Positions 36,898-60,229 of a DNA stretch of 64,000 bases are shown here, in pieces. A program made the position numbers and the translations under genes. How positions within the stretch are numbered: the first letter of the stretch is position 1; every line of letters begins with the position of its first letter. The stretch spans positions 98,319 through 162,318 of the forward strand of contig NZ_CANRKH010000002.1 in the NCBI RefSeq assembly GCF_947631165.1, written 5' to 3'. Source of the stretch: an uncultured Dysosmobacter sp. Its GTDB lineage: Bacteria > Bacillota > Clostridia > Oscillospirales > Oscillospiraceae. A model generated the notes under the pieces. The model made no database searches and was not told where the DNA came from. It saw only the letters and a list, made by a program, of their open reading frames with translations.

Positions 36898-36900
36898 ACG

Positions 36901-38364: not shown

Positions 38365-38380
38365 AAGGGAGGGAAAGAAC

Positions 38381-39561: not shown

Positions 39562-39581
39562 CGCCGGTCCGCCCTTTTGGG

Positions 39582-40148: not shown

Positions 40149-40185
40149 GGCATAACCTCCATTCTTGTGTTGTTGTTCGGAAAAA

Positions 40186-40236: not shown

Positions 40237-40253
40237 GAAGGGAGGGAAACGCG

Positions 40254-44758: not shown

Positions 44759-44761
44759 CGC

Positions 44762-45163: not shown

Positions 45164-45174
45164 GAGGGGCGAAA

Positions 45175-45492
45175 ATGGCTTATGTAGTAAAGGCGTACAC
45201 GCCCGGAAAGATCAATCTTGCGCCGGAATCCACGGTTGAAGAGGTTTTGCAGAATATCGCAATGATTCTGACAACGCCGCGGTTCTCCGTCCCCCTTGAC
45301 CGGGGGCTGGGGCTTGCACAACGCTTCCTTGACAAGCCGGTTCAACTGGCCCAGCCCATTCTGATTTCAGAGGTCATGGAGGCGATCACCCTATACGAAC
45401 CGCGGGCGGAGATCGTGAACGTGTCGTTCGAGTTGGGCGAACTGCCCGGCGCGCTGATTCCTGTTGTGGAGGTGAATATCATTGTCGAATGA
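45175..45492 (+). CDS. Baseplate wedge protein (gpW / gp25-like)
   Basis: 105 residues. TVEEVLQNIAMILTTPRFSV and PLDRGLGLAQRFLDKPVQLA match the gp25-like lysozyme-fold wedge proteins. Overlaps gene J by 11 nt. Confidence 0.87.
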   Translation: MAYVVKAYTPGKINLAPESTVEEVLQNIAMILTTPRFSVPLDRGLGLAQRFLDKPVQLAQPILISEVMEAITLYEPRAEIVNVSFELGELPGALIPVVEVNIIVE

Positions 45493-47282: not shown

Positions 47283-47284
47283 AA

Positions 47285-48160
47285 ATGCCCGAAAGAACAT
47301 ACGGAACCGTCGTCACCGACACCGGCACAAGGCTGGGCGTTATCGCGGTGCAGACGGGAACAAAGGTCAATATCACGACGCTGGCCGTCGGCGACGGCGG
47401 CGGGTCCTATTATCAGCCGGTCCCCGCGCAAACGGAACTGAAAAATCAGACGTGGAGCGGGGCGGTCAAAAGCGTGTCGATCAATGAGGATTCCCCGAAC
47501 ATGATTGACGTTGTGGCCGTCATCCCCTCCGACGTGGGCGGGTTCACAATCCGCGAAATGGCGGCGCTGACGGAAGAGGGACAGGCGTTCGCAATCTGCA
47601 ACACCCCGGACACCGAAAAAGTCATCATTGCAAGCGGGGCGGCGGGGGAAGTCGAAGTGACAATGCACATCGAATATTCCAACACCGGGATTATTTCTTT
47701 CAACATTGACCCGAACGTGGTTACGGCCACGAAAAAGGACCTTGAAAAGCACAACGCAGACCCCGCGGCACATGGCGCGCTTTTCGACGGGTTCGCCTCG
47801 AAGATCGAACTGAACGCCCACACCAACAACAGCGACATTCACGTGAACCCCGAAACTATGGGCGCTTACGACGCGGCCATTGCCGACCTGATCGAACACG
47901 TGCAGGACACCGACAAGCACGTTACAGCGGCGGAAAAGGCGAAGTGGAACGCGTCGGAGGCGACCGCGGAAAAGGCGGAGGCGGACGCGGCGGAGGCGTT
48001 GCGGAAGGTGGGCGAACTGGAAAGCCGGGTGGCCCGCGTGGAAGATGGCCTATTCAACAATATCACCGGCAACCCCTATTTGGTGCAGTTTGATTCGCTG
48101 GAAGGAATCAAGCTGGTAAAGGGCATTTGGAACGCCGCCCGGCAACGAATCGAATGTTGA
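47285..48160 (+). CDS. Tail fibre protein (gpH-like N-terminus)
   Basis: 291 residues. The N-terminal ~165 residues (TRLGVIAVQTGTKVNITTLA, IPSDVGGFTIREMAALTEEG) match the fibre attachment domain following gpI. A helical HVTAAEKAKWNASE segment and a short end follow. It is too short to carry a full receptor domain, which the DGR target at 50331 may provide. Confidence 0.85.
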   Translation: MPERTYGTVVTDTGTRLGVIAVQTGTKVNITTLAVGDGGGSYYQPVPAQTELKNQTWSGAVKSVSINEDSPNMIDVVAVIPSDVGGFTIREMAALTEEGQAFAICNTPDTEKVIIASGAAGEVEVTMHIEYSNTGIISFNIDPNVVTATKKDLEKHNADPAAHGALFDGFASKIELNAHTNNSDIHVNPETMGAYDAAIADLIEHVQDTDKHVTAAEKAKWNASEATAEKAEADAAEALRKVGELESRVARVEDGLFNNITGNPYLVQFDSLEGIKLVKGIWNAARQRIEC

Positions 48161-48382
48161 GGGAATACGCGTGTCCGCCGCGGGAACTATCCTGCATTAT
48201 CGGAAATCTGTTCGTGGAACTGGAACCGCCTTGCGCGGGGTGAGCAGACGCTGACCGGCTGACGATCAGCGGGAGGACGTACACCGGGCGCAGGGCGGTT
48301 CTTATCGTCACCGAATACGGGTTCTTGTTCGACGGGGACCCGGCGGAGATCGAAACCATACGGGAAAAGAAGTGCGTTTATC
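48154..48382 (+). CDS. Small frame interrupted by TGA after the fibre gene
   Basis: From ATG 48154 the frame reads MLREYACPPRELSC, then GNLFVELEPPCAG, TGA at 48241-48243, and continues in the same frame as ADADRLTISGRTYTGRRAVL and VTEYGFLFDGDPAEIETI up to the Avd start. Both halves look coding. It may be a broken gene or two short ones. No function recognised. Confidence 0.4.
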
Positions 48383-48823
48383 ATGTCACAGCAAGGACCG
48401 GCCAAACAGCCGCCGGAAGAAGAAAAAGAATTCAAGATCATAAGCAACGCGAAGGAGCTGGCGAAGCACACGCGGCGGATGACCAGCGCCCGGCGTTTTC
48501 CGAAACGGTTTGCGGACCTTGTGCGGAGGATGAACGACACGGCGCTGGAGATTTTCGAGCGGGTGCAGGAGGCGAACGAACTTGACCTTGCGGACCCGGC
48601 GGAGGCGCGGGAACGGCGTTACCATCAGCGAAAGTCCATGACGAAGTGTAAAACCATGCTGTTCTTTATCGAACAGGCGCGGGAAAGCGACCTGATTTCA
48701 AAGGAACAATGCGAGGAATGGGCGCGGAAGGTGCTTGACGTGAAACGCCCCGTCGCCACATGGACGAAACAGGACCGGGGCCGGGCCGCAGACTATCAAC
48801 GGAGGAACGAGCCGCGGCGGTGA
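48383..48823 (+). CDS. avd: DGR accessory variability protein (Avd-like)
   Basis: 146 residues, predicted to be a helical bundle: RRMTSARRFPKRFADLVRRM, DTALEIFERVQEANELDLAD, KCKTMLFFIEQARESDLISK. It lies directly upstream of the template repeat and reverse transcriptase, where Avd proteins occur. In known DGRs Avd is a pentameric basic barrel that binds the reverse transcriptase and template RNA. Confidence 0.8.
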   Translation: MSQQGPAKQPPEEEKEFKIISNAKELAKHTRRMTSARRFPKRFADLVRRMNDTALEIFERVQEANELDLADPAEARERRYHQRKSMTKCKTMLFFIEQARESDLISKEQCEEWARKVLDVKRPVATWTKQDRGRAADYQRRNEPRR

Positions 48824-48859
48824 AAGCCGCCGGGCGCTTTTCTTGGGGTGCGCTTTGTC

Positions 48860-48951
48860 GCGTCGAATTCCTACAATGCCCGCAACGTCAATTCCTCCGG
48901 CACGCTGAACAACAACAACGCGTACAACGGCAACAACGGCGTTCGCCCGCT
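48860..48951 (+). repeat. Template repeat (TR) of the DGR
   Basis: 92 bp, A-rich in codon-like AAC/AAT groups (AACAACAACAAC at its core). It aligns without gaps to VR1 (13 differences, 12 at TR adenines) and its 3' part to VR2 (13 of 13). It lies in non-coding DNA between avd and the reverse transcriptase gene. The 3' flank differs from that of the variable repeats, as IMH* does from IMH. Confidence 0.93.
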
Positions 48952-49218
48952 CTGGTGGATTACCGCGATTTTGAGTAAACCCCGCGAGGGGTTGAAAGCA
49001 GAGGACCACCATCAAAGGAAAGCGTATCCCTCCGCCGCGGAAGCGACGGTAAATACAAGATTGGTGAAGCAAGGCCCACGGGAACCAGCTTCCGCCCGCC
49101 GCGGGCGCGCGGCGGGTCCGATGATGACGCATTGCGACGGCGAATCATGGACCCGGACAACCGGGAGATTCCGCCGCCCCCGCAAGGCCGATTCTATACA
49201 CGGCAAGGAGTTTTCCCC
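48952..49218 (+). other. Non-coding spacer between TR and reverse transcriptase
   Basis: No convincing gene. It contains the hairpin CCCCGCGAGGGG (48979-48990) and GC-rich stretches. In characterised DGRs the RNA downstream of TR is needed for priming and Avd binding, so this spacer is probably part of the template RNA. Confidence 0.5.
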
Positions 49219-50346
49219 ATGCAACAAAAGACCGACGATTTCACGATTGTTTACGATTTCGGGAACCTTTACGCGGGATTCCTGAAAGCGCGGAGAGGCA
49301 AAAGACAGAAATACAGCGTTGCGAAGTTTGAAGCGAATTTGCTGGAAGCCCTTTGCCTCTTATCCGATTTGCTGAAATCGGGCGAATACAGACCGTCGGA
49401 ATATTACATTTTCCGGGTGTATGAGCCGAAAGAACGAATCGTAATGACAAACGCGTTCAAGGATAAAGTCGTGCAACATTCCCTTTGCGACAACATCCTT
49501 GAACCGGCCTTTTCTGTATCTTTTATCGCGGACAACTACGCTTCCCAGCGTGGCCGCGGGACCCATTACGGATTATACCGCCTCGAAGATTTCATGCGTT
49601 CGTACTATTTCGAGCGCAAGGCGAAATCGGACGCGGAGCGGCGGGCGGCGGGATTGCCGCCGGTCCGGGCGCAGGACGGAGGATATGCGAACGGGTGGGT
49701 CCTTAAATGCGACATATCGAAGTATTTTTATTCGATTCAGCACGGGCCATTAAAAGAAATGGTCCGGCAATACTTCCGGGACCCGCTGTTGCTGTGGCTG
49801 ATCGACTTAATCATTGACAGCACGGAGAACCCCGGAATCCCCATCGGCAACCAAACGTCACAATGGTTCGCCGTCATGTATCTGTCCGGCCTCGATCACT
49901 TCATCAAAGAGAAATTGGGGATTCGGTACTATGGCCGCTATATGGACGACTTTTATTTGATACATGAGGACAAGGCGTATTTGCAGTATTGCCGCCGGGA
50001 GATCGAAAGGTATCTTGCGGGGCTGGGCCTCCGCCTGAACAACAAAACAAACATCTTCCCGCTGAAAAACGGCATTGACTTTTTGGGTTTCCACACCTAT
50101 TTGACGGATTCCGGGAAGGTGATTCGGAAAGTGAGGCGCAGAAGCAAATGTAACGAACAAAGGAAGTTGCGGAAGCAAAGAAAGCTACTGGACGCGGGCA
50201 AGATCACACTTGCGAAGGTGGAACAATCCTATCAAAGCTGGCGGAGCCACGCGGCGAAGGGGAATTGTCATCATCTAATCCGGGAAACCGACAAACTATT
50301 TCACGACTTATTCAAGGAGAGTGAAGCGAAATGGCAAAAAGTTTAG
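49219..50346 (+). CDS. DGR reverse transcriptase
   Basis: 375 residues from ATG 49219 after GGAG. Reverse transcriptase motifs are visible: VYEPKERIVMTNAFKDKVVQ, WVLKCDISKYFYSI (motif A), IPIGNQTSQWFAVMYLSGLD (DGR-type motif with SQ) and YGRYMDDFYLI with YMDD at residues 241-244. It copies template RNA with errors at adenines for mutagenic homing. It overlaps the target gene by 16 nt. Confidence 0.95.
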   Translation: MQQKTDDFTIVYDFGNLYAGFLKARRGKRQKYSVAKFEANLLEALCLLSDLLKSGEYRPSEYYIFRVYEPKERIVMTNAFKDKVVQHSLCDNILEPAFSVSFIADNYASQRGRGTHYGLYRLEDFMRSYYFERKAKSDAERRAAGLPPVRAQDGGYANGWVLKCDISKYFYSIQHGPLKEMVRQYFRDPLLLWLIDLIIDSTENPGIPIGNQTSQWFAVMYLSGLDHFIKEKLGIRYYGRYMDDFYLIHEDKAYLQYCRREIERYLAGLGLRLNNKTNIFPLKNGIDFLGFHTYLTDSGKVIRKVRRRSKCNEQRKLRKQRKLLDAGKITLAKVEQSYQSWRSHAAKGNCHHLIRETDKLFHDLFKESEAKWQKV

Positions 50347-52049
50347 GTTCGCTTTCCGTGGGCGCGCTGGTGAAGGACACCGGCACGCTCTACAACGGAA
50401 AGCCGATCATTTGGAAAATCGCCGACAAAGACCACGCGGGCTATCCCAGCGGGGCCGTGACGCTGATTACGGACCGCATTATTTCGCTGAAATGCTTTGA
50501 CGCAATCGAAGCGTCGAATTCGGACAGCAACCGCAAGCAGTACGGCAATAACCGCTGGATTTACTCTAATATCCGGCTATGGCTGAACAGCGCGGCGGCG
50601 GCGGGCGCGTGGTATTCGGCCCAGCACGGGCAGGACGCGCCCCCGAACAATGCGAACGTATGGAGCAATTACAACGAATACGAAGCGGAAGCGGGCTTTC
50701 TGTACGGCTTTTCGGCGAACTTCCGGGCGGCGCTGTTGGAAACCTCCCACACCGTCGGCAAAGCCTCCGTGGACGGCGGCGGGACGGAGGTTTGCAAAGA
50801 CAAAGTGTTTTTCGCAAGCTGTACGGAGGTTGGCTTGTCCGGCGACGCGGTTTGCGGCACGAAGCTGGCCTTGTTCACCAACGACGCTTCCCGGCAAGCA
50901 TACCCGACGGCGGAGGCCGTGGAAAAAAGCGAATACAAAACGTCGGGGCTTTCCGCAACGGCGTATTGGTATTACTGGCTGGCGGACGCTTACGCGTCGG
51001 ATTCCTACACTGCCCGCCGCGTCCATTCCACCGGCTCGCTGATCACCAACAGCGCGTACGACGGCTTCAACGGCGTTCGCCCGCTTTGTAATCTGAAATC
51101 TGAAATCTTGGTATCTGATTCCACGGACAGCGACGGCGCGTACACGATCATTTGGAACCGCACGCCCACGGTCCCGGAAAGTATCAGCGTTCCGGCGACG
51201 GTCCGGGGCGGCGAAAATCTGACGGTCACGTGGGGAGCCTCCACGGACGCGGACAACAATTTGTCCGGGTACGTGCTGGAACGCCAGCACGACGACGGGG
51301 TTTTTGAACAGGTTTACAAGGGAATCAACCGCACGTACACGGACGCGATCACGAAGGGCTGGAAAAACGTCACCTACCGCGTGAAAGCCTACGACAGCGC
51401 CGGGGCGGAATCGGCGTATAAGACCAGCGAAAAACGAACGGTCATCAATAACACCGCGCCCACCATCGACGGCACGGACAAGGACTTGGGCGCAAAGACC
51501 GGGGCGTTCTCGCAAGCCTACACCGCGACGGACCCGGACGCGGGGCAGACGCTGACCGTGACGGAGTACATCGACGACACGAAGAAGCGGGAGTATCAGG
51601 CCACCAGCGGGCAGGAATACACGTTCAGCGTGACCGCCGACGAATGGTTGAAGCTGTTGAACGGGTCCCACAAGTTGAAGATCACCGCCGCGGACAACTA
51701 CGGCGGGAGCGCCACCCGGACGTACACGTTCAGCAAGAACGAAACCGAAATTGAGTTGACGCTGGCCACCCCCCTTCCGGCTGACGACATGATTACAAAA
51801 GCGATTATGAGCGTCACCCGGCAGATTCCGGCGGGGGCCACGTTCACGGTTGAAGTCTGCAACAACGCGAACGACGAAGCGCCCACGTGGGAGGACGTGA
51901 CGCAGGCCGTGAACAGCGGAAGCAAATTCTTTTTCACCAACGACAAAAAGACCGCCGACACGTGGGCTTTCAACTTCCGAATCAAGGTGAAGCGGAACGA
52001 GGCCGTCGGCGACTGTTTCATTCTTTCGGCAGGGGGGAATTTTGAATGA
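50331..52049 (+). CDS. DGR target: variable receptor-binding tail protein
   Basis: 572 residues. Residues 1-~265 form a DUF6273-like domain ending in the variable segment (residues ~222-252) and VRPLCNLKSEILVSD. A fibronectin type III-like domain follows (TVPESISVPATVRGGENLTV, YRVKAYDSAGAESAYKTSE), then one or two Ig/cadherin-like domains. Its place after the fibre gene and RT suggests host recognition at the tail tip. Diversification would change receptor range. Confidence 0.88.
   Translation: MAKSLGSLSVGALVKDTGTLYNGKPIIWKIADKDHAGYPSGAVTLITDRIISLKCFDAIEASNSDSNRKQYGNNRWIYSNIRLWLNSAAAAGAWYSAQHGQDAPPNNANVWSNYNEYEAEAGFLYGFSANFRAALLETSHTVGKASVDGGGTEVCKDKVFFASCTEVGLSGDAVCGTKLALFTNDASRQAYPTAEAVEKSEYKTSGLSATAYWYYWLADAYASDSYTARRVHSTGSLITNSAYDGFNGVRPLCNLKSEILVSDSTDSDGAYTIIWNRTPTVPESISVPATVRGGENLTVTWGASTDADNNLSGYVLERQHDDGVFEQVYKGINRTYTDAITKGWKNVTYRVKAYDSAGAESAYKTSEKRTVINNTAPTIDGTDKDLGAKTGAFSQAYTATDPDAGQTLTVTEYIDDTKKREYQATSGQEYTFSVTADEWLKLLNGSHKLKITAADNYGGSATRTYTFSKNETEIELTLATPLPADDMITKAIMSVTRQIPAGATFTVEVCNNANDEAPTWEDVTQAVNSGSKFFFTNDKKTADTWAFNFRIKVKRNEAVGDCFILSAGGNFE
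50994..51085 (+). repeat. Variable repeat VR1 of the DGR
   Basis: Same length as TR. 13 differences from TR, 12 at TR adenines (for example AAC to CGC, AAC to TTC, AAT to CAT). The single exception is a T to A change. The 3' flank TTTGTAATCTGAAATCTG is shared with VR2. Confidence 0.93.
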
Positions 52050-52225
52050 GCGTGAAGCATACGCCGACCAGCATTGCGAACAAGCCGAAATCCGTTGAAG
52101 AGTTGACGGAGGAAAACAAGCGGCTTTCCGCGGAAAACGCCAGCTTGTCGGAACAGGTGACGGACCTTCAAATGGCGCTTTGCGACGTTTACGAGTTAGT
52201 CGAAACCGCCGTTTACAGCGAGTAA
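52046..52225 (+). CDS. Small coiled-coil protein after the receptor-binding protein
   Basis: 59 residues, starting on the ATGA of the previous gene. VEELTEENKRLSAENASLSE is a leucine-zipper-like helix. It may be a fibre or lysis accessory; function unknown. Confidence 0.65.
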   Translation: MSVKHTPTSIANKPKSVEELTEENKRLSAENASLSEQVTDLQMALCDVYELVETAVYSE

Positions 52226-52243
52226 AGGAAGGGGGAAAAACCG

Positions 52244-52366
52244 ATGGAAAAGGTATATGCGGACCTTATCAGGAAGGGCAAAAAGACCCTTGAAGAAGTC
52301 CCGGAACGCTTGCGCGAAAAGGTGCGGGCGCTGTTGGAGGCGGAAGGCGGGGGCGGCGGTGAGTAA
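52244..52366 (+). CDS. CD1375-like small protein, copy 1
   Basis: 40 residues: MEKVYADLIRKGKKTLEEVP, then RLREKVRALLEAEGGGGG. It resembles the short CD1375-type proteins found between tail and lysis genes of clostridial phages. A paralogue follows at 52419. Confidence 0.6.
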   Translation: MEKVYADLIRKGKKTLEEVPERLREKVRALLEAEGGGGGE

Positions 52367-52418
52367 CGCGCTGTTCCTGCTTTTAGCATACATCTTTTGC
52401 AGAAAGGAGGTCCGAACG

Positions 52419-52541
52419 ATGGCCGTTGTGTATGCCACCCTGATCGTGAAGGGTAAAAAGACTATGGCGCAGGTCCCCGACCGGCTGAAAGCCGAAGTCA
52501 AGGAACTGCTGGACGCGCTGGAGATCACCGACGTTGAGTGA
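52419..52541 (+). CDS. CD1375-like small protein, copy 2
   Basis: 40 residues from ATG 52419 after AGAAAGGAGG: MAVVYATLIVKGKKTMAQVP, then RLKAEVKELLDALEI. It shares the KGKKT...VP.RL...V..LL.A pattern with copy 1. Role unknown. Confidence 0.65.
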   Translation: MAVVYATLIVKGKKTMAQVPDRLKAEVKELLDALEITDVE

Positions 52542-52614
52542 CGGCGCGCCCGACGGACGGCCCCGGCGCAAGCGCGCCGGGGCTTTCTCAAATCCAAAAC
52601 GGAGGTAAAAAGCA

Positions 52615-52917
52615 ATGGGCGAAACGGTTTTAACGGCGATCAGCGTTATTAGTACGCTTTGCGCTATCGTGTTCGGGTATGCGGCATTCGCCCGCAACGG
52701 GAAGAAGGACACGGAGGCGGAGGCGAAAAACGACGCTACGGTTCTAACCGAAATCGGGTACATCAAAGGCGGAATCGACGACATCAAGGCAGAACAGCGG
52801 GAACAGCGAAAAACAAACACCGATCTAATCACCCGCCTGACCGCCGTTGAATCTTCCGCGAAACAGGCACACCATAGGCTGGACCGCCTCGAAAAGCGGG
52901 AGGACCGGGAAGAATAG
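52615..52917 (+). CDS. Membrane-anchored coiled-coil protein of the lysis module
   Basis: 100 residues. One membrane segment (TVLTAISVISTLCAIVFGYA) and a long charged coiled coil to the end. Similar in layout to XhlA-type lysis helpers, but with the membrane part first. Confidence 0.6.
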   Translation: MGETVLTAISVISTLCAIVFGYAAFARNGKKDTEAEAKNDATVLTEIGYIKGGIDDIKAEQREQRKTNTDLITRLTAVESSAKQAHHRLDRLEKREDREE

Positions 52918-52928
52918 GGGGAGGCGGC

Positions 52929-53309
52929 ATGAACTATCTAATCAGCGCCGCCGCGGGGTTGATCGGAGGGTTCGCCGCCGTCCTGCTTTTGGGGACGGGC
53001 CGGACGCGAAAGCGCCGGAACAGCAAAACGGAGCAAACGAAGAAGAGCCGCCGGAAGTTTGAGTTTTCAAAACTTGTTCTTTCGGCGGTTCTCTTTACCT
53101 ATTTTGCGGGGTTCGGCGTGGGCGTTTGGGCCGTGTTCGTGGACCCGTCGCAACTTTCGGTTCTGCTGACCTACATTGCCGGGCCGACGATCACGGCGAC
53201 CGGGTTTTACGCGTGGAAAGCAAAGGCGGAAAACGTCGTGAAGATCAAGCAATCCGCCCCGAAAGCGACGGAGGGAATGCCCGTTGACCTGAACAACATT
53301 CAACCTTGA
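52929..53309 (+). CDS. Putative holin-like membrane protein
   Basis: 126 residues with membrane segments near residues 3-21, 50-72 and 78-98 (LVLSAVLFTYFAGFGVGVWA, VLLTYIAGPTITATGFYAW) separated by a basic loop. It sits directly before the endolysin. Could be a holin or antiholin. Confidence 0.6.
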   Translation: MNYLISAAAGLIGGFAAVLLLGTGRTRKRRNSKTEQTKKSRRKFEFSKLVLSAVLFTYFAGFGVGVWAVFVDPSQLSVLLTYIAGPTITATGFYAWKAKAENVVKIKQSAPKATEGMPVDLNNIQP

Positions 53310-53323
53310 TCGGAGGTTTCACA

Positions 53324-54922
53324 ATGGGTTTGAACGGAAAAACAGTTGAAGAGCAGATTTATAATTTCCTGATCGGAAAGGGCCTGACCCCGGCGGGGGC
53401 CGCGGCCCTTATGGGGAATTTGTACGCCGAAAGCGCATTGAAGCCGACGAACCTTCAAAACAGCTATGAAAAAAAGCTGGGGTACACCGACGACACGTAC
53501 ACGGCGGCGGTTGATTCGGGGGCATACGGAAACTTTGTCCACGATTCCGCCGGGTACGGCCTCGCACAGTGGACCTATTGGAGCCGGAAACAGGCGCTTT
53601 TGGATTTCGTCAAGGCGCGGGGCGCGTCCGTGGGCGACCTCGAAGCCCAGCTTGAATTTCTGATTCACGAACTGGACACGGGTTACGCCTCCGTCCTGTT
53701 CGCGCTGAAAACCGCCGTCGCGGTGCGGGAAGCGTCGGACGCGGTTTTGCTGAAATTCGAGCGACCGGCGGACACCGGGCTGGCCGTGCAGATCAAGCGG
53801 GCCGGTTACGGGCAAGCCTATTTCGACAAATACGCCGGGTCCCCCGCCGGGGACACGGGGAAAGGAACGGGAAAGATGAAAGCAACGGTTTTCATTGAGA
53901 AGCTGGAAAACATCGTGCGGAACTATTCGACGCTGTACGTCATGGGCTGTTTTGGCGCGCCCCTGACGGGCGCGAACGTGACCCGGTATTGCAATAACCA
54001 TTCGTACAACAAACAGGCCGCGCGAACGCAGATGATAAAGGCCGCGGCAAACAAGAATCCGCCCGTGTATGGGTTCGATTGCGTTTGCTTGCTGAAAGGC
54101 GTTCTTTGGGGATGGTGCGGCGACGCGTCCCGGACATACGGCGGCGCGGGGTACGCCGTGAACGGCGTTCCCGACATTGGAGCGGACAGCATGATAAAAG
54201 TATGCAAGGACGTTTCAACGGATTTCGGGAAGATCATTCCGGGGGAAGCCGTCTGGTTGTCCGGGCATATCGGGGTTTATGTCGGCGGCGGAAAAGTCGT
54301 CGAGTGTTCCCCGGCGTTCAAAAATTGCGTGCAGGAAACGGCGTGCCTGAACATCGGGGCAATCCCCGGCATGAACGGGCGGAAGTGGACCAAACACGGG
54401 AAGTTGCCGTATCTCGAATACGACACGACCGCGGAAACCCCCACGGGAGGCGGTACAGCGGGCGCAGGAAGCCCCGGAACGTCCGGGGGGTCCTCCGATA
54501 CGTCCGGGGCGCTGGCGTTCGCTGTGGGCGACGTGGTGCGGTTCACGGGGGCCGTTCACTATTCCAACGCGAACGCGGCAACCGGCCCCGCGTGCAAGCC
54601 GGGAACGGCGAAGGTGACGGCCATTGCGAAGGGCGCGAAACACCCTTACCACCTTATCAAGCAGACCGGCGGCGGGTCCACGGTTTACGGCTGGGTCAAC
54701 GCGGCGGACGTTCAGGCCGTCGCCGCCGCCGCGCCGAAAATGCGCGTCGGCGCGAAGGTGCAGTATTCCGGCCCCCTCTACCGGGACAGTCTCGGAAACG
54801 GACAGGGAAAGACCGTGAACGGCACGTACACGGTCAAATATTACTATCCGGGCCGGAAATGCGGCGTACACATCGACGGGCTGGGCTGGGTCCCGGAATC
54901 CGCCTGTAAAGTCATCGGCTGA
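53324..54922 (+). CDS. Two-domain endolysin
   Basis: 532 residues from ATG 53324 after GGAGG. The N-terminal phage-tail-lysozyme type domain (residues 1-~170) has AAALMGNLYAESALKPTNLQ with a candidate catalytic glutamate. A NlpC/P60-like domain follows (YGFDCVCLLKGVLWGW cysteine, WLSGHIGVYVGGGKVVE histidine). The C-terminus carries SH3-like wall-binding repeats. It degrades peptidoglycan at lysis through both glycan and peptide bonds. Confidence 0.85.
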   Translation: MGLNGKTVEEQIYNFLIGKGLTPAGAAALMGNLYAESALKPTNLQNSYEKKLGYTDDTYTAAVDSGAYGNFVHDSAGYGLAQWTYWSRKQALLDFVKARGASVGDLEAQLEFLIHELDTGYASVLFALKTAVAVREASDAVLLKFERPADTGLAVQIKRAGYGQAYFDKYAGSPAGDTGKGTGKMKATVFIEKLENIVRNYSTLYVMGCFGAPLTGANVTRYCNNHSYNKQAARTQMIKAAANKNPPVYGFDCVCLLKGVLWGWCGDASRTYGGAGYAVNGVPDIGADSMIKVCKDVSTDFGKIIPGEAVWLSGHIGVYVGGGKVVECSPAFKNCVQETACLNIGAIPGMNGRKWTKHGKLPYLEYDTTAETPTGGGTAGAGSPGTSGGSSDTSGALAFAVGDVVRFTGAVHYSNANAATGPACKPGTAKVTAIAKGAKHPYHLIKQTGGGSTVYGWVNAADVQAVAAAAPKMRVGAKVQYSGPLYRDSLGNGQGKTVNGTYTVKYYYPGRKCGVHIDGLGWVPESACKVIG

Positions 54923-54939
54923 AAGAAAGGGGAACGAAC

Positions 54940-55227
54940 ATGAAAGAGAAAATCGCAAACCGCCTGTTGACGGTAAAATCAATCGTTACTATCCTGCTGA
55001 CCGTCGTTTTCGCGGTTCTAACCGTGATCGGGCGGCTGGACCAAAACTTTATGATGATTTATACGGTCATCATCAGTTTTTATTTCGGCACGCAATCCGT
55101 CAAGGCTGACACCGGCGGCGGCACGTCCGGCGGCGGCGACACCGGCGGCGGAGGGAACACCGGCGGGAGCGCCGGGAGCAACGCGGAGGACCGGGAGAAA
55201 AAGAGCGACGACGGCGGCGGAGAGTAA
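54940..55227 (+). CDS. Holin
   Basis: 95 residues. Two membrane segments (VKSIVTILLTVVFAVLTVIG and MMIYTVIISFYFGTQSV), then a Gly/Thr-rich charged tail. Typical small holin after an endolysin. Confidence 0.75.
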   Translation: MKEKIANRLLTVKSIVTILLTVVFAVLTVIGRLDQNFMMIYTVIISFYFGTQSVKADTGGGTSGGGDTGGGGNTGGSAGSNAEDREKKSDDGGGE

Positions 55228-55241
55228 ACCGCCGCGCGCAG

Positions 55242-55259
55242 TTGTCCGATTCGGACAGA
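55242..55259. repeat. 18-bp palindromic site, candidate parS, copy 2
   Basis: TTGTCCGATTCGGACAGA, identical to 23508-23525 near parB and 31.7 kb away from it. It lies between the last late gene and its terminator, in non-coding DNA. Confidence 0.6.
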
Positions 55260-55267
55260 TACACGAA

Positions 55268-55301
55268 GCCCGCCGGGGGATGACCCCGGCGGGCTTTTTT
55301 T
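55268..55301. terminator. Strong terminator at the end of the late operon
   Basis: GCCCGCCGGGG (55268-55278) pairs with CCCCGGCGGGC (55284-55294), then seven T's. It separates the rightward late genes from the leftward control-region operon. Confidence 0.9.
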
Positions 55302-55311
55302 GCTGGAGGGG

Positions 55312-55650
55312 TCAAAGCCCCTTGAAGAATACTTTGTTCCCGCGGCGGTACAGCTTGCCGGGGGTGACGTAATCGACGGTTTCCGGCTTGCCAGAAAGCG
55401 GGTTTTCCTCCGTCGTGATTTCGTGCCGGTAAAAGTGATACTTCCAGCCGCGTTCCCCGCACGCGCTGTCGTCGCGCTTCATTTCCTGCCACATATACCA
55501 TAGATCGGCCACGGTTGCAACGGGTACGTCGTCAATGTCGGAATCCCCTTCCTGATATGCCCCTATGCTGTAATAAAGGTTCGTGGTTACGGTCCGGGAA
55601 ACGAAGATACCGTTTTCATACGTGTTCAGCCTTTTTCTGTGTTCCTGCAT
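55312..55650 (-). CDS. Leftward operon protein 3, unknown
   Basis: 112 residues. Contains TVTTNLYYSIGAYQEGDSDI and GKLYRRGNKVFFKGL. No recognised domain. Last gene of the operon controlled by the palindromic operator at 56710. Confidence 0.55.
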   Translation of the reverse strand: MQEHRKRLNTYENGIFVSRTVTTNLYYSIGAYQEGDSDIDDVPVATVADLWYMWQEMKRDDSACGERGWKYHFYRHEITTEENPLSGKPETVDYVTPGKLYRRGNKVFFKGL

Positions 55651-55675
55651 TATAATTCCTCCGTTCTATTTGTAG

Positions 55676-55915
55676 CTATTCAAGAAACCAGTCTTTTTTT
55701 ACTTCATCCCAGCCGCAAGTTGCTACTATGCGCGGGGTTGAAGCATTGCTTCCGTCAAGGCTTTTGCGAATGGCGTTTTGCGCGTCGGAAAGTGATTTGT
55801 AAATCGGAATCCCGGAAGTGCGCCCGGAACATTGTTCGCGGTCAAGAACCCAGCCGGGAGGAAAAGGGCAAATCCATTCGCCGCGGTAAACATAGAATGC
55901 ACCGATTTTTTGCAT
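55676..55915 (-). CDS. Leftward operon protein 2, unknown
   Basis: 79 residues from ATG 55915, preceded by GGAGGG. Aromatic-rich (YVYRGEWICPFPPGWVLD), with YKSLSDAQNAIRKSLDG. Function unknown. Confidence 0.55.
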   Translation of the reverse strand: MQKIGAFYVYRGEWICPFPPGWVLDREQCSGRTSGIPIYKSLSDAQNAIRKSLDGSNASTPRIVATCGWDEVKKDWFLE

Positions 55916-55969
55916 TGTCAATCCCTCCGTTCGAGCGGGACGGCGGCGGACCGCCGCCCCGCGCTGATC

Positions 55970-56557
55970 TTATCGGACGAACACGCCCAGCGGGGAGCCG
56001 CCGGGGGACCGCCAGCCGCGGCGGTGAATCTCGCAGAGGCGGAGGCGTTCGGGAACGTCGGGGTTGTCGTCCCAGCGGACAAGGGCGAAGGACCCGCCCC
56101 GGAAAAACCGCCCGTCGGGAACATCGACGAACCCGGCAATCGTGCCGCCCACGGCGGGGAAGCAAGCGCCGCAATTCCGTTCGACGCGCTGGCCGATCAT
56201 CAAAATAACCGTGCCGTCATCGACGGGCTGGGCAATGGTAACGACGTTCGAGGCGGCGGGAGCCTCTACGGGAGCGGGAGCGGCGGCGGGGGCCGGGGTT
56301 TCCTCCACGTCGGCGGCGGGGGCCTCTTCCGGCTGAACTTCACGTTCAGCGCGGAAGGTGGGGGCCATAGAATAGCGGTCCGGCTGGATGAACTCGCAAC
56401 CGTCGTCGTCAATGCGGATTTTGGAGCGGCGGGCCTCGCCCATGTAGTTATAAGAAACGGTTTTAGCGGTGCGGCCCGTGATCGTGATAACGAACTTGCA
56501 ATTATAGTCGCAGATGGAGCGGGTGACATAGGACTTGCCGATTTCAAACTTTTTCAT
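55970..56557 (-). CDS. Leftward operon protein 1, unknown
   Basis: 195 residues; ATG 56557 after GGAGG. The first ~70 residues form a small beta domain (VTRSICDYNCKFVITITGRT). A ~40-residue Ala/Pro/Glu linker and a second beta-rich domain (VILMIGQRVERNCGACFPAV) follow. First gene behind the leftward promoter. Confidence 0.6.
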   Translation of the reverse strand: MKKFEIGKSYVTRSICDYNCKFVITITGRTAKTVSYNYMGEARRSKIRIDDDGCEFIQPDRYSMAPTFRAEREVQPEEAPAADVEETPAPAAAPAPVEAPAASNVVTIAQPVDDGTVILMIGQRVERNCGACFPAVGGTIAGFVDVPDGRFFRGGSFALVRWDDNPDVPERLRLCEIHRRGWRSPGGSPLGVFVR

Positions 56558-56579
56558 TCTGATTACCTCCCATATATTG

Positions 56580-56705
56580 AACAGTGGTTGAAGTGTCGTG
56601 GTTTACCGTGTCGGCCCCCTTTCCGTGTCGGCCCGTAAGGTTGGCCGTTGCCGAACTTTACGCCCCGGCAACCGGGCAGCTTTTGTTTCCCTCTTTCTGA
56701 TTATT
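56580..56705. other. Leader of the leftward operon
   Basis: About 126 bp between the O1 promoter and the first leftward gene, with no gene of its own. It contains repeats of GTGTCGGCC and GGGGC-type words that could fold in the RNA. Nothing more is seen. Confidence 0.3.
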
Positions 56706-56734
56706 ATTATATACTAACGTTAGTATAAAGTCAA
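56706..56734 (-). promoter_or_regulatory. Leftward promoter with palindromic operator O1
   Basis: Minus strand: TTGACT (56734-56729), 17-nt spacer, TATAAT (56711-56706). The spacer is filled by a perfect palindrome TATACTAACGTTAGTATA (56710-56727), ideally placed to block RNA polymerase. Confidence 0.85.
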
Positions 56735-56762
56735 GAGGGCAAAAGAGAAAAAACTATACAAA

Positions 56763-56823
56763 TATACTAACGTTAGATTGTGCAATTTATATACTTGCGT
56801 TAGTATCAAAAGCGTGTTACAAT
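56763..56823 (+). promoter_or_regulatory. Rightward promoter of the RHH gene with operators O2 and O3
   Basis: O2 is TATACTAACGTTAGAT (56763-56778). O3 is TATACTTGCGTTAGTAT (56790-56806). The promoter is TTGCGT (56795-56800), 17-nt spacer, TACAAT (56818-56823); O3 covers the -35. Confidence 0.85.
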
Positions 56824-56847
56824 AGGAGCCGAAAGGAGGGCGAAAAC

Positions 56848-57051
56848 ATGGCCGGAAAATATGAAACGCCCCGCGGACAGTCTGCAACCGACGCGAAGCG
56901 CAAGTATAACGAAAAGAACTATGATCGGATTTATCCGATGGTGAAGAAGGGAAAGAAAGAAATCTATCTTGCCGCGGCGCAGGCCGCGGGAATGTCCTTG
57001 AATGAATGGATTGAAAAGACGCTGGACGCGGCGGCGGGCGCGCAAGCATAA
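56848..57051 (+). CDS. Ribbon-helix-helix (Arc-like) repressor
   Basis: 67 residues after GAAAGGAGGG. RIYPMVKKGKKEIYLAAAQA and AGMSLNEWIEKTLDAAA match the strand-helix-helix Arc/MetJ-type fold. It sits between O1-O3 and has O3 over its own promoter. The same operator is at the transposase promoter. I infer that it represses itself, the leftward operon and the transposase. Confidence 0.75.
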   Translation: MAGKYETPRGQSATDAKRKYNEKNYDRIYPMVKKGKKEIYLAAAQAAGMSLNEWIEKTLDAAAGAQA

Positions 57052-57096
57052 AAAACGGCGGCGGGCGAAGTGCCCGCCGCTTTTCTGTTCGGGAGA

Positions 57097-57879
57097 TCAG
57101 AGGCCCAGCAACTGCTTTTTCTTTGCGGAAAATTCCTCTTCCGTAATCGCGCCGGAATCCAAAAGGGCTTTGAACTTTGCGATTTCGTCGGCGGCGGAGG
57201 GGGCCGCGGGAGCGGAGGCCGGGGCGCTTTGCGCGCGCCGCAAGCCGTCAATTTCCGCGTGGAGTTTGGGGGCAATCTTCCGGGCCGGGTCCGCGCCGAC
57301 GAACACGGAAAAGGTTTCCTTCATCGTGTCAATCGTCAACGTGCCGTTCAGAATGCCGGAAGCAACGGTAATGTCGTTCAGGTTGTCGAGATATACGGTT
57401 TTCAGCTTGTCCCCGGCGACAAGGTTTTGCTGGCCGCAGATCAGCCGCCTATTTGTGAGGGCATAGGCGTATGTCTGTTCGTGCTTGCTGGCGGATTTGT
57501 AGTTGTGGAGGCCCAAAAAGACCGCAAGGACCTTTTCGCCGTCCATAAGGGCTTTTTCGATGACGCGGAAATGGTTTTGCCCCCATTTATCGGACACCGC
57601 GACACCAAAACCCACCATTTTACAAGCCTGATACATAGATTCGGCGGTTTGCAAGTCGCCGCATTCCGCCGCCGCCGTTGCCGCCGCCGCGCCCTCCGTC
57701 CGGGCCGCAATCGCCGCGCGGATTTCGGGAACGGTCATCTTTTGCGGGGTCAATGCCATAAGACCGCCGCCAGCCTTGACGCATTCGGCGCACACGCACG
57801 CGCCGTCCTTTGTTTTATACCGGGTCAACCCGGCTTTTTTGCCGCATACGCCGCAAAGAACTTCACCAAACAAGCCCAT
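57097..57879 (-). CDS. Zinc-ribbon / PH-like / SHOCT protein (accessory gene)
   Basis: 260 residues from ATG 57879 after GGAGG. An N-terminal zinc ribbon (CGVCGKKAGLTRYKTKDGAC, then CAEC), a bacterial PH-like domain in the middle (YAYALTNRRLICGQQNLVAG, KTVYLDNLNDITVASGILNG) and a C-terminal SHOCT motif (IAKFKALLDSGAITEEEFSA). Such proteins are common in bacteria and phages, with no settled role. Divergent from the XRE gene and part of the shared-motif group. Confidence 0.75.
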   Translation of the reverse strand: MGLFGEVLCGVCGKKAGLTRYKTKDGACVCAECVKAGGGLMALTPQKMTVPEIRAAIAARTEGAAAATAAAECGDLQTAESMYQACKMVGFGVAVSDKWGQNHFRVIEKALMDGEKVLAVFLGLHNYKSASKHEQTYAYALTNRRLICGQQNLVAGDKLKTVYLDNLNDITVASGILNGTLTIDTMKETFSVFVGADPARKIAPKLHAEIDGLRRAQSAPASAPAAPSAADEIAKFKALLDSGAITEEEFSAKKKQLLGL

Positions 57880-57931
57880 TTTCACAACCTCCGTTATATT
57901 TTTGAGGGCGGAGCCGCGAAAACCGCTGGCG

Positions 57932-58002
57932 TTCCGACCTTTAACACAATTATGAATGCTTCCCGTGCTAAAGTCAAGAATAATGCTGAACTTTAACACG
58001 GG
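57932..58002. promoter_or_regulatory. Divergent control region of the PH-SHOCT and XRE genes
   Basis: The leftward promoter is TTGACT (57977-57972), 17-nt spacer, CATAAT (57954-57949). Downstream is the reverse complement of TTCCGACCTTTAACACAAT (57932-57950). A 13-bp inverted repeat, CCCGTGCTAAAGT (57962-57974) and ACTTTAACACGGG (57990-58002), overlaps the -35 and lies before the XRE gene. All three carry the TGYTAAAG word, so XRE binding is likely. Confidence 0.75.
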
Positions 58003-58012
58003 AGGGGTCAAA

Positions 58013-58258
58013 ATGAAGATATATGACTATCACGGACGGAAGAACCTTTGCGGGGACCGGGTGCGGGAGGCGCGCGCCCGGCAGAAGATCACACAAACGG
58101 ACCTTGCCGCCCGTCTGCAAGTGGAAGGAATCGTGCTGGAGCGGGACAGCATTTCAAGAATTGAGATCGGAACCCGGTTCGTCGCAGATTTTGAACTTGT
58201 GATTCTTGCGAAGGTGCTGGGGGTTTCCCTCGAATGGCTGACCGGCGGAAACGAATAA
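58013..58258 (+). CDS. XRE-family regulator (cI/Cro-like)
   Basis: 81 residues from ATG 58013. The helix-turn-helix is VREARARQKITQTDLAARLQ, then ERDSISRIEIGTRFVADFEL and a terminal VLGVSLEWLTGG. A single HTH domain without a C-terminal dimer or protease part. Likely binds the CTTTARCACA-type sites before itself and three leftward genes. Confidence 0.85.
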   Translation: MKIYDYHGRKNLCGDRVREARARQKITQTDLAARLQVEGIVLERDSISRIEIGTRFVADFELVILAKVLGVSLEWLTGGNE

Positions 58259-58262
58259 TTAT

Positions 58263-58296
58263 TATACTTGCGTTAGTATAAAGCACGTGTTATAAT
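58263..58296 (+). promoter_or_regulatory. Transposase promoter with operator O4
   Basis: TATACTTGCGTTAGTATA (58263-58280) is nearly identical to O3. The promoter is TTGCGT (58268-58273), 17-nt spacer, TATAAT (58291-58296), with the operator over the -35. A leader hairpin CCCCGCCC/GGGCGGGG (~58316-58346) lies before the start codon and may damp translation. Confidence 0.85.
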
Positions 58297-58370
58297 GCTT
58301 CCCGACACAAAACGACCCCGCCCGACGCTGACAAGCGGGGGCGGGGAATCTTGACGGGAGGTTTTTATAT

Positions 58371-59417
58371 ATGGGTCATTGTTATAGTCACCTGACGCGG
58401 GCGGACCGCTACAAGCTGGAGGACCTATTAAACGCGGGGCGGCGGAAACAGGAAATCGCCGACATTCTCCACGTTCACGTGAGTACAATTTACCGGGAGA
58501 TCAAGCGCGCCCGCTGGGTCCACCTTGACGGGGAAACATGGATTGAAGAAGAGCGGTACAACCCGGACGAAGCCGACCGCCTTTACAGGGAAAATCTGAA
58601 AGCGAAAGGGGCAATGCTGAAAATCGGGAACGACTTTGAATTTGCCGACTACATCGAACGGAAGATTCGGGACGAACACCGTTCCCCCGCCGCGGCCCTT
58701 GCGGAAGCGGAGTTGGAGGGAAAGAAATTCAGGACCCATATTTGCGTGAACACCCTATACAGCTATATTGCGAAGGGCGTTTTCCTGACGATCAGCAACG
58801 CCGACTTGCCGGAAAAGCCGAAAAAGAAGCGGCCATATCGGAAGATCAAAACCGCGAAGCGCCCGCCCGCCGGGGAGAGCATAGAACACCGCCCGGCGGA
58901 GGTTGACGAACGAAGCACGTTCGGACATTGGGAGATGGACACGGTTTATTCCGCAAAGGACACTTCCCGAACGGCGGTGCTGGCGCTGACCGAACGGCTG
59001 ACCCGTGATAACATCATGGAGAAAATGCCGGACAGGACCATTGAAAGCACCATTCAGGCGCTGGACAGGATAGAACAGCGATTCGGCCCGGCCCTCTTCC
59101 GAAAGGTATTCCGCACGATCACGGTTGACAACGGCGTTGAATTCTCCGACGTGGAGAGGCTGGAACGGTCCATAACCGGGCAGGGGAAGCGAACGACGGT
59201 TTATTTCTGCCACCCGTATAGCAGTTACGAACGCGGGTCAAACGAATGTCAAAACAAAATGTTTCGGCGGAAGTACCCGAAGGGAACAGATTTTGGGTCC
59301 GTGTCCGCCGAAGAGATAAAAGAACATGAAGCGTGGATGAACAACTATCCCCGGAAGGTGCTGGGCTGGAGAACCGCGGCAATGCTTTTCCGGGAGTGCG
59401 TCGCCGCGCTTTCCTGA
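58371..59417 (+). CDS. IS30-family DDE transposase, probable phage integrase
   Basis: 348 residues after GGGAGG. The N-terminal helix-turn-helix is IADILHVHVSTIYREIKRA. The catalytic core is FGHWEMDTVYS (D190), RTITVDNGVEFSDV (D253) and SSYERGSNECQN (E287), giving the DD(33)E spacing of IS30. Full length with no defect. It lies 37 bp from the right inverted repeat, has no private IS ends around it, and is driven by a promoter with the phage operator. It is the only recombinase recognised in the phage. Confidence 0.92.
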   Translation: MGHCYSHLTRADRYKLEDLLNAGRRKQEIADILHVHVSTIYREIKRARWVHLDGETWIEEERYNPDEADRLYRENLKAKGAMLKIGNDFEFADYIERKIRDEHRSPAAALAEAELEGKKFRTHICVNTLYSYIAKGVFLTISNADLPEKPKKKRPYRKIKTAKRPPAGESIEHRPAEVDERSTFGHWEMDTVYSAKDTSRTAVLALTERLTRDNIMEKMPDRTIESTIQALDRIEQRFGPALFRKVFRTITVDNGVEFSDVERLERSITGQGKRTTVYFCHPYSSYERGSNECQNKMFRRKYPKGTDFGSVSAEEIKEHEAWMNNYPRKVLGWRTAAMLFRECVAALS

Positions 59418-59454
59418 CCGCCTAAAAACAGGGATTATATTTTTTTATATTTTT

Positions 59455-59479
59455 TTCGCATTTGCTATTGACATTTCCA
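59455..59479 (-). repeat. Right terminal inverted repeat of the phage
   Basis: Its reverse complement begins GGAAATGTCAATAGC after one base and matches the left repeat at 16 of 25 positions. It also supplies the new codons WKCQ and a TAG stop for the host gene at 59465. Confidence 0.6.
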
Positions 59480-60229
59480 TCCGATGGCGATCTGGCCCAG
59501 GCGGAGAACGCCCGCCTCCCGCAGGAACGCCAGCAGCTGGGCGCGGTCCGCTCCCTCCGGCAGCTTTTCCTCCAGGGCGGGCGGCAGCAGAAGCGGCGGC
59601 AGGGGCGCCGTCTCGTCATACAGCCGCAGCACCGCCGGATTGCGGCAGGTGAGATCCGTCCGCGGATCGAACAGCACCAGGGCCTCCGCCCCCTCCAGCT
59701 GGTCCTTGTCGGGTCCCAGCAGCAGCGACACGCCGTACTCCCGCCGCAGCTGACGGCACAGCTCCTCCCCGCCGTAGGGCAGATCCAGCAGCACGTAGCG
59801 GTGGCGGAGGCACAGCTCCGTCACGGTCCGCGCCACCTGGCCGGTGAGGGTCCCGGCGGTCACTGCCACCCTGGCCCCCGCCGCCGGGATGCCCCGCTCT
59901 GCCAGCAGCCAGCGGGTATGATCCGCCGCCAGGGCCTGCCGCAGGGGCAGGGTGGACACCGGCCCCACCCCCGCTTTGGCCAGCGCCGGGCCATAGGAGA
60001 AGTCCCGGGGCAACACCGCCTGAATGACCCCCTGCTTCCGCAGCCGCTTCCCCGCCGCCGCGACCCGGCGGCGGACCACCGCTTCCGGCGTTTTAGGCCC
60101 CCGGGCCACCTCCGCCAACAGCAGCCGGGCGTGCATCACGCTGATCTCCCGCAGTGTCACCGCCCGCCGTCCTCCGCCCGGCTCTTTCCACAACAATAAT
60201 CCGATCATAAAAACCGCCTCCCGCTCCAT
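59465..60229 (-). CDS. Host protein of unknown function, C-terminus rewritten by the phage
   Basis: 254 residues (a start at 60208 is possible). A helical N-terminal half with many arginines, then a Rossmann-like part (GARVAVTAGTLTGQVARTVT, YVLLDLPYGGEELCRQLRRE, LLLGPDKDQLEGAEALVLFD). The last residues GQIAIG come from the direct repeat and WKCQ from the phage. The pre-insertion end would have been GQIAIGAADT. I do not recognise the family. Confidence 0.75.
   Translation of the reverse strand: MEREAVFMIGLLLWKEPGGGRRAVTLREISVMHARLLLAEVARGPKTPEAVVRRRVAAAGKRLRKQGVIQAVLPRDFSYGPALAKAGVGPVSTLPLRQALAADHTRWLLAERGIPAAGARVAVTAGTLTGQVARTVTELCLRHRYVLLDLPYGGEELCRQLRREYGVSLLLGPDKDQLEGAEALVLFDPRTDLTCRNPAVLRLYDETAPLPPLLLPPALEEKLPEGADRAQLLAFLREAGVLRLGQIAIGWKCQ
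59480..59494 (+). repeat. Right 15-bp direct repeat (attR core or target duplication)
   Basis: TCCGATGGCGATCTG, identical to 11701-11715. It encodes QIAIG near the C-terminus of the host gene on the minus strand. Confidence 0.9.

What the first reader, a model, noticed from the sequence alone, without database searches (positions are those of the whole stretch)
58371..59494. IS30-family transposase as the probable integrase of a P2/lambda-like phage
No tyrosine or serine recombinase is recognisable in the 47.8-kb phage. The only recombinase is a full-length DD(33)E IS30-type transposase (D190, D253, E287), placed 37 bp inside the right phage end. It has no inverted repeats of its own around it. 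The phage ends carry 25-bp inverted repeats matching at 16 positions, flanked by a 15-bp direct repeat. This looks like a transposable phage built on IS30 chemistry rather than MuA. IS30 elements usually make 2-3 bp duplications. From memory, mycoplasma IS1630 of the IS30 group makes long, variable ones at inverted repeats, and the target here has an imperfect dyad.
Basis: partly seen in the sequence, partly recalled or inferred. Interest (0 to 1): 0.93.

Follow-up and report, generated by a model that had tools for sequence, protein, structure and literature searches.

The report
Phage that integrates upstream of promoters
This 47.8-kb bacterial virus carries no conventional integrase that our searches could find; it is flanked by a 15-base duplication and, like 27 of 29 relatives checked, has a predicted host promoter starting about 11 bases beyond that duplication, so it likely uses its IS30-type 'jumping gene' enzyme to settle next to promoters, which would be a new rule for where viruses insert into bacterial chromosomes.

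Summary
A tailed prophage (11716-59479) carries a full-length IS30-type DD(33)E transposase at its right end and no detectable tyrosine or serine recombinase. Its 25-bp ends match at 16 positions and a 15-bp repeat flanks it. IS30-type integrases in such phages are already published (Lagaffe, 2018). New here: (1) 30 of 33 related elements with both ends located carry exact repeats of 14-18 bp (18 exactly 15), all different. (2) In 28 of these 30 a sigma70-like promoter starts 10-12 bp beyond the repeat (other offsets: mean 0.7 of 30); in the window it is greA's. (3) Junction-bearing contigs join right end, 2 variable bases and left end; this assembles a predicted promoter that integration splits. 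(4) Related IS also leave ~15-bp repeats; three of five groups follow the promoter rule. Likely mechanism: copy-out/paste-in transposition aimed at promoters, perhaps via RNA polymerase (inferred). The common target feature is neither an inverted repeat (IS1630) nor a conserved att core. Promoter targeting is published for Mutator-type TnGBS/ISLre2/ISKra4; nine searches of an open-access library showed me none for IS30-type enzymes or phages.

The parts
11716..59479 (+). Prophage (47,764 bp) between the two copies of the target duplication
   Evidence: Boundaries from the 15-bp repeat and from the near-fixed end lengths in junctions of relatives; tailed-phage genes by Pfam/PHROGs
58371..59417 (+). 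IS30-type DD(33)E transposase, the presumed integrase
   Evidence: Pfam HTH_38 and rve, phrog_4646, catalytic residues invariant, fold
11701..11715 (.). Left copy of the 15-bp target duplication TCCGATGGCGATCTG
   Evidence: Exact repeat
59480..59494 (.). Right copy of the 15-bp target duplication
   Evidence: Exact repeat
11716..11740 (+). Left terminal imperfect inverted repeat
   Evidence: 16 of 25 positions match the right end (counted)
59455..59479 (-). Right terminal imperfect inverted repeat
   Evidence: 16 of 25 positions match the left end (counted)
59468..59473 (+). -35 half (TTGACA) of the predicted circle-junction promoter, right end
   Evidence: same layout in the 23 junction-bearing loci
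11725..11730 (+). -10 half (TAATAT) of the predicted circle-junction promoter, left end
   Evidence: with a 2-bp spacer the hexamers would be 17 bp apart, model score 15.2; integrated right end 4.0
11731..11765 (+). Predicted terminator-like hairpin followed by a T-run, at the start of any transcript from the junction promoter
   Evidence: RNA fold -20.3 kcal/mol
11818..12105 (+). Small HTH_38 protein, homologue of the transposase N-terminus, near the left end
   Evidence: Pfam, phrog_11420; a relative follows the junction in 22 of 23 loci (the exception, L111, ends 136 bp after the start of the junction)
11661..11689 (-). Predicted host greA promoter TTGACA-17-TATAAT, -35 starting 11 bp beyond the left repeat copy
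   Evidence: score 18.8; TTGACATTC...TATAAT also found upstream of greA in the 7 genus relatives aligned
59465..60229 (-). Host gene whose last codons were hit by the insertion; next to greA in relatives (empty site)
57956..58258 (+). Repressor-like gene immediately upstream of the transposase
   Evidence: PHROG transcription-regulation families

Best explanation
The window holds a tailed prophage that likely integrates by transposition with its own IS30-type transposase, into a site that in 28 of 30 elements of its kind (this phage included) ends 10-12 bp upstream of a predicted sigma70-type host promoter and is duplicated over about 15 bp. Shown by sequence: ~15-bp duplications of unrelated targets, insertion in either orientation, the promoter offset, absence of detectable tyrosine/serine recombinases in this phage, and end-to-end junctions with a variable 2-bp spacer in relatives. 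Inferred: (1) one transposase-cleaved end is joined 2 bp outside the other end and a circle is copied out, as in IS30/IS3/IS256-type copy-out/paste-in. (2) The circle brings the -35 (right end) and -10 (left end) together into a promoter that would drive the left-end HTH gene and early genes, subject to the hairpin just downstream. (3) Integration splits that promoter again, favouring lysogeny. (4) The transposase complex finds targets through RNA polymerase bound at promoters, since the cut falls in the UP-element region (about -61 to -47). Steps 1-4 are untested.
For: Exact repeats of 14-18 bp in 30 of 33 assembled element pairs (18 of them exactly 15), with 30 different sequences. Promoter score over 6 bits at offset 10-12 in 28 of 30; other 3-wide windows mean 0.68, maximum 3; Markov-shuffled flanks 2.9%. 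The best-scoring promoter within 70 bp of either repeat copy lies at 10-12 in 26 of 30; spacing is 17 bp in 23 of 28. Of the 12 elements whose two ends were resolved only after the rule was noticed, 11 obey it. In 86 right flanks, which include right flanks of many of the same elements, 32 have a promoter at 24-28 from the phage end, against a mean of 2.3 (maximum 6) in 12 other windows. Junctions: 23 of 23 loci score 9.3-18.8; one phage has CA, GT, TA, AA, TT, TC in six contigs. Two tailed prophages of this kind sit in the same genome at different targets. Empty site in 8 of 9 relatives. Tree: a 100/99 branch separates two IS without the preference from promoter-targeting IS, an inovirus, one undetermined IS and the phages.
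Against: Two of 30 elements score under 6 at the offset: G005 has a weak candidate (5.7), and G180C5, whose transposase has an internal stop, has none. Four of 30 have their best promoter elsewhere (G017C4, G002C1, G013C4, G180C5). Three of 33 pairs show no repeat (G002C42, G006, G009); two of these still have a right-flank promoter at 26-27, G002C42 has none there. The promoter matrix and the 6-bit cut were set by me from general knowledge. Elements are related, so not fully independent, though their targets differ. The 2-bp spacer differs from the 15-bp duplication, whereas the IS2 model expects spacer and direct repeat to be equal (PMC3299598). A predicted terminator follows the junction promoter, so it may not drive the early genes. 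No wet evidence. In Lagaffe's record the junction is one base shorter than expected.
Confidence: 0.86

Rival explanations
1. The 15-bp repeat is an att core used by an unrecognised site-specific recombinase, and the transposase is a passenger insertion sequence.
For: A 15-bp exact repeat looks like an att core; many phage ORFs have no family match.
Against: The repeat differs in every relative; junction-bearing loci carry 2 bp, not 15, between the ends; related transposases lie beside these junctions (loci were found through them, or by junction patterns); no PF00589 or PF00239 match in the phage.
Confidence: 0.03
2. Targets are inverted repeats or terminators, as for IS1630, and promoters are incidental.
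For: Several right flanks hold terminator-like hairpins (seen by eye, e.g. L011, L092, L068).
Against: The duplication is close to 15 bp rather than variable; the promoter offset holds in 28 of 30. Hairpins are expected upstream of promoters, at the ends of neighbouring genes (general knowledge). I did not score hairpins systematically.
Confidence: 0.03
3. The enzyme simply prefers A/T-rich or bent DNA, which happens to lie upstream of promoters.
For: A/T fractions are high at positions -18 to -14 and -6 to -4 relative to the -35 box.
Against: The offset is sharp (10-12) and the -35 and -10 boxes themselves are recovered; the duplicated targets of W, G015 and G203 are over half G+C.
Confidence: 0.15
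4. A Mu-like transposable phage that replicates lytically by repeated transposition, with IS30 chemistry in place of MuA.
For: DDE enzyme at the end of the genome, many targets, target duplication.
Against: For Lagaffe a cos region is reported, and variable host DNA on virion ends is reported for its neighbour Mushu only, in the passages read (PMC5883640); 23 junction-bearing loci point to circular or concatemeric forms.
Confidence: 0.05

Closest known systems
Lagaffevirus (Faecalibacterium phage FP_Lagaffe), Cornuault et al. 2018, PMC5883640 (passages read)
   Same: Tailed phage whose integrase is given as an IS30-type transposase, 54% identical to ours; direct repeats at its ends were noted; DGR. 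Its prophage in G666 shows the same layout: 15-bp repeat AAAAAATTTGAAAAA and a promoter 11 bp beyond
   Different: The paper found the direct repeats surprising and gave no target rule, 2-bp spacer or junction promoter in the passages I read
TnGBS / ISLre2 / ISKra4 (p-MULT 3 and 4), Guerillot et al. 2014, PMC3942029 (passages read)
   Same: DDE elements that insert at a fixed distance upstream of sigmaA promoters; TnGBS elements are conjugative
   Different: Mutator-type transposases, not IS30; 15-17 bp from junction to -35 rather than 26 (15 + 11); not phages
IS30 and the copy-out/paste-in families (IS3, IS21, IS256); PMC3299598, PMC7780238 (passages read)
   Same: Circular intermediate with a short spacer; the joined ends assemble a promoter (17-bp spacing in IS2)
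   Different: In the IS2 model spacer and direct repeat are equal; in ISCth4 spacers are 6-8 bp and duplications 8 bp; here 2 versus 15 bp. IS30 itself duplicates 2-3 bp (recalled)
IS1630 of Mycoplasma fermentans; PMC3317919 (passages read)
   Same: IS30-type transposase with long duplications (16, 23, 25, 26 bp)
   Different: Variable length; targets inverted repeats according to the title of Calcutt et al. 1999, seen in that paper's reference list
Phage FP01 of F. prausnitzii, PMC13432834 (2026; passages read)
   Same: Carries an IS30-type transposase gene (orf43) and an HTH gene of COG2826 (orf46)
   Different: Read there as an IS element in a lytic phage; by analogy it is probably the integration module (inference)

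Membership tests
IS30-family transposase | N-terminal HTH_38 and a DD(33)E catalytic domain | tested here: met
   rve match slightly below Pfam's cut-off
IS30 family (element level) | 2-3 bp target duplication (recalled) | tested here: not met
   14-18 bp, mostly 15, in the 30 elements with a repeat; related IS of 1.2-1.4 kb also duplicate 13-17 bp in 14 of 20 copies
Copy-out/paste-in elements | Joined ends with a short variable spacer and a junction promoter | tested here: met
   2-bp spacer and promoter-like junction in 23 loci; that the two bases come from the host is supported only by Lagaffe (AA)
Copy-out/paste-in elements | Figure-of-eight intermediate made by the transposase | not testable with these tools
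   Needs biochemistry
Promoter-targeting elements (TnGBS-like) | Insertion at a fixed distance upstream of sigmaA promoters | tested here: met
   28 of 30, promoters predicted only; the enzyme family differs, so it works like TnGBS but is not a member
Tailed temperate phage with tyrosine/serine integrase | Phage_integrase or Resolvase gene | tested here: not met
   no match between C2:110.0 and 157.8 kb
Mu-like transposable phage | MuA/MuB and virion DNA with variable host ends | not tested
   No MuA match among the 49 ORFs scanned with Pfam or PHROGs, but not searched for as such
Lagaffe-like tailed phages | Transposase next to the junction, then the HTH_38 gene | tested here: met
   genus-level placement and the other genes of Lagaffe not compared

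The most novel reading that the evidence does not exclude
RNA-polymerase-guided phage integration: an IS30-derived transposase reads promoter-bound polymerase to choose where a tailed phage settles, and the phage's own promoter is built from its two joined ends, so that insertion itself switches the early genes off and circle formation switches them on.
Probability: 0.45. Interest if true: 0.94.

Novelty: new variant of a known kind. Interest (0 to 1): 0.86.

Why it matters
Temperate phages are usually filed by site-specific integrases with conserved att sites, or as Mu-like with near-random targets. This group appears to do neither: it picks one position relative to host promoters, at many loci. 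That gives a direct way to find the true ends of such prophages and predicts that they may alter or exploit regulation of host genes such as greA and tRNA operons. It also poses a testable question about transposases that sense RNA polymerase, with a second enzyme family besides the Mutator type, and a concrete model of a lysogeny switch built from split promoter halves.

Tried and rejected
Site-specific att core: rejected, because repeats differ in all relatives and are absent from junction-bearing loci. Inverted-repeat/terminator target (IS1630-like): suspected early from hairpins in right flanks; dropped when the left flanks of the same elements showed promoters 11 bp out, though I did not score hairpins systematically. 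Passenger IS: rejected (same place beside the junction in relatives). The second IS30 hit in this genome (C1:71414) turned out to belong to another ~51-kb tailed prophage. The C10 hit is a fragment at a contig end. Early regular expressions failed for several transposases; those elements were redone by coordinates. Four junction patterns gave no hits. A first alignment used a wrong strand for L002 and was replaced. The HTH gene as a dedicated IS30 partner is uncertain: in this genome two further HTH matches (C20, C31) lie within 2 kb of a serine- and a tyrosine-recombinase match.

Rows dropped before counts: 3 of 33 pairs without a repeat were left out of the promoter count. Pairs could be formed only where transposase and HTH gene lay on one contig in matching orientation. 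Of these 160 loci, 112 gave a recognisable TTGAC right end: 86 counted as integrated, 18 as junctions, 8 too short. The 86 contain some near-identical loci (e.g. L101/L109). One search left out two of the 18 (L126, L128: same junction as L125) and added the 4 named phages and L345, L363, L364. For multi-copy IS, 20 regions were fetched; 14 gave a repeat of 13 bp or more; 9 of 14 have the promoter at 10-12: 2 of 2 in G496 (3 more copies gave no repeat), 4 of 4 in G621, 2 of 2 in G495, 1 of 3 in G467 (score 6.7), 0 of 3 in G124; G506 (3 copies) gave no repeat.

Full report
1. What is there. The window (G000:C2:98319-162318) holds a 47.8-kb prophage at 11716-59479. It has a gpA-type terminase, lambda-family portal, capsid protein E, tail tube FII, baseplate proteins, tail fibre, endolysin and a reverse transcriptase of the kind found in diversity-generating retroelements. 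Its right end carries an IS30-type transposase, its left end a 95-aa HTH_38 protein related to that transposase's N-terminus. Whole-genome six-frame searches for Phage_integrase (25 matches in the genome) and Resolvase (16 matches) put none inside the phage. I scanned 49 phage ORFs, some of them probably not genes, against Pfam or PHROGs; apart from the transposase no integrase-type recombinase was matched (a RecU-like protein was).

2. Prior art. Cornuault et al. 2018 (PMC5883640; passages read) named an IS30 transposase as the atypical integrase of the prophage Lagaffe, showed virions, a cos region, and direct repeats where they expected inverted repeats. Nine searches of the held open-access library (listings seen, six papers opened for passages only) also returned a 2026 paper on phage FP01 with the same two gene types, read there as an IS element. 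In what I saw there was no statement of a promoter rule, a 15-bp rule or a junction promoter for IS30-type phages. Most subscription papers are outside that library.

3. Junctions. Named phages Lagaffe, nd4, nd12 and Dulem 34 show transposase, a short junction, then the HTH gene. In 23 junction-bearing loci (4 named phages, 1 genome contig, 18 viral contigs) 12 bases from TTGAC on, 2 bases, and about 13 bases before a conserved ATTAAATG-like motif follow each other (Lagaffe's record is one base shorter). In one phage six contigs have six different dinucleotides (CA, GT, TA, AA, TT, TC); two other near-identical pairs also differ (L110/L111, L007/L058). The joined ends read TTGAC(A/T), about 17 bp, TA-rich hexamer; model scores run from 9.3 to 18.8. 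For the window the predicted joined form scores 15.2 and the integrated right end 4.0. A hairpin with a T-run follows directly (window -20.3 kcal/mol), a complication for the idea that this promoter drives the early genes.

4. Target duplications. I assembled 33 transposase/HTH pairs on single contigs. Thirty have an exact repeat at the ends: 18 of 15 bp, 8 of 16, 2 of 14, one each of 17 and 18, the excess being consistent with chance matches next to a 15-bp repeat. All 30 sequences differ. Three pairs have none (G002C42, G006, G009).

5. The promoter rule. While reading flanks I noticed a -35 box 11 bp beyond the repeat, on the right in some elements and on the left in others. A simple -35/-10 matrix of my own was then slid over both flanks. 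28 of 30 elements exceed 6 bits at offset 10-12; other windows average 0.68 of 30, at most 3; shuffled flanks 2.9%. In 26 of 30 the best promoter within 70 bp of the repeat is at that offset (binomial p about 6e-32 against uniform placement, treating elements as independent). Spacing is 17 bp in 23 of 28; 18 lie on the left flank and 10 on the right. Twelve of the 30 had their two ends resolved only after the rule was noticed, and 11 of those obey it; the exception has a stop codon inside its transposase. In 86 right flanks taken without regard to the left end, and overlapping with the pairs, 32 have a promoter at 24-28 (15 + 11 = 26) against a mean of 2.3 elsewhere. With -35 boxes as anchor the repeat covers about -61 to -47, and A/T-rich positions fit an UP element (UP-element position recalled). 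A tRNA gene is predicted within 400 bp on the promoter side in 8 of 30 (its strand and promoter not checked).

6. The window's own target. The repeat lies in the last codons of a host gene next to greA (gene named from its sequence by me). In 8 of 9 genus relatives fetched, the two genes are neighbours without a phage; in all 7 that I aligned, a TTGACATTC...TATAAT promoter precedes greA. In the window that -35 starts exactly 11 bp from the repeat. The same genome has a second tailed prophage of this kind at C1:~71-123 kb, also 11 bp from a predicted promoter.

7. Where the property comes from. Multi-copy IS of about 1.2-1.4 kb with related transposases also leave about 15-bp repeats (14 of 20 copies fetched). 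Those of G496, G621 and G495 obey the promoter rule (8 of 8 copies with a repeat), those of G467 and G124 hardly (1 of 6). In the tree of 36 transposases a 100/99 branch separates the latter two from the promoter-targeting IS, an inovirus transposase, the undetermined IS of G506 and all the phage-type elements (long branches, few IS). So a promoter-aiming IS30 subgroup may well have existed before phages took it up, and the 15-bp step may be older still. The inovirus junction (L377) has the same split-promoter look by eye.

8. Mechanism and limits. The layout fits copy-out/paste-in: asymmetric joining of one end near the other, a circle whose junction is both promoter and substrate, then symmetric insertion (PMC3299598, PMC7780238; passages read). 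The mismatch between a 2-bp spacer and a 15-bp stagger is unexplained; the IS2 model expects them to be equal. Polymerase guidance is inference from position, and the A/T-preference rival is not excluded. The spacer's host origin rests on one case (Lagaffe: spacer AA, repeat beginning and ending in AA), where the record may have been built from the prophage. Loci with a junction could also be tandem copies rather than circles.

Noticed in passing
window 49132-50346 and 50331-52049: Reverse transcriptase (phrog_1423) next to a Hoc-like protein gene: probably a diversity-generating retroelement; the second prophage in the genome also has an RVT_1 protein (L215:17076-18305).
   Followed up: partly
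window 21318-22238, 22516-24782, 15218-16039: Phage carries a DUF5131/radical-SAM-like protein, ParA and ParB-like genes and a REP/G2P-like replication protein.
   Followed up: no
G000:C20:2090-2317 and C31:1598-1834: Further relatives of the left-end HTH protein lie within 2 kb of a serine-recombinase and a tyrosine-recombinase match, so the HTH gene may not be tied to the IS30 type.
   Followed up: partly
L377 (PQ006121.1, inovirus) 2876-4330: A filamentous phage has a related transposase followed by a junction that also looks like a split promoter (TTGCAA ... TAAATT).
   Followed up: partly
L204 (G013:C4:52000-62500): A ~5.7-kb element with the same ends, a 16-bp repeat and a promoter nearby holds holin, amidase, IS200-type, Xre-like and HicB-like genes: a phage remnant or small satellite.
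   Followed up: partly
L021, L026, L031, L042, L054 and similar, downstream of the transposase: A group of loci, several from Lachnospiraceae, has no TTGAC right after the transposase; in one resolved case (G016/L054) the end lies ~220 bp further and obeys the same rule.
   Followed up: partly
G666 (100% Lagaffe transposase), C1:~970-1018 kb: The prophage's right end reads TTGACTTTTCCC while the phage record's junction has one C fewer, perhaps a sequencing or editing difference.
   Followed up: partly
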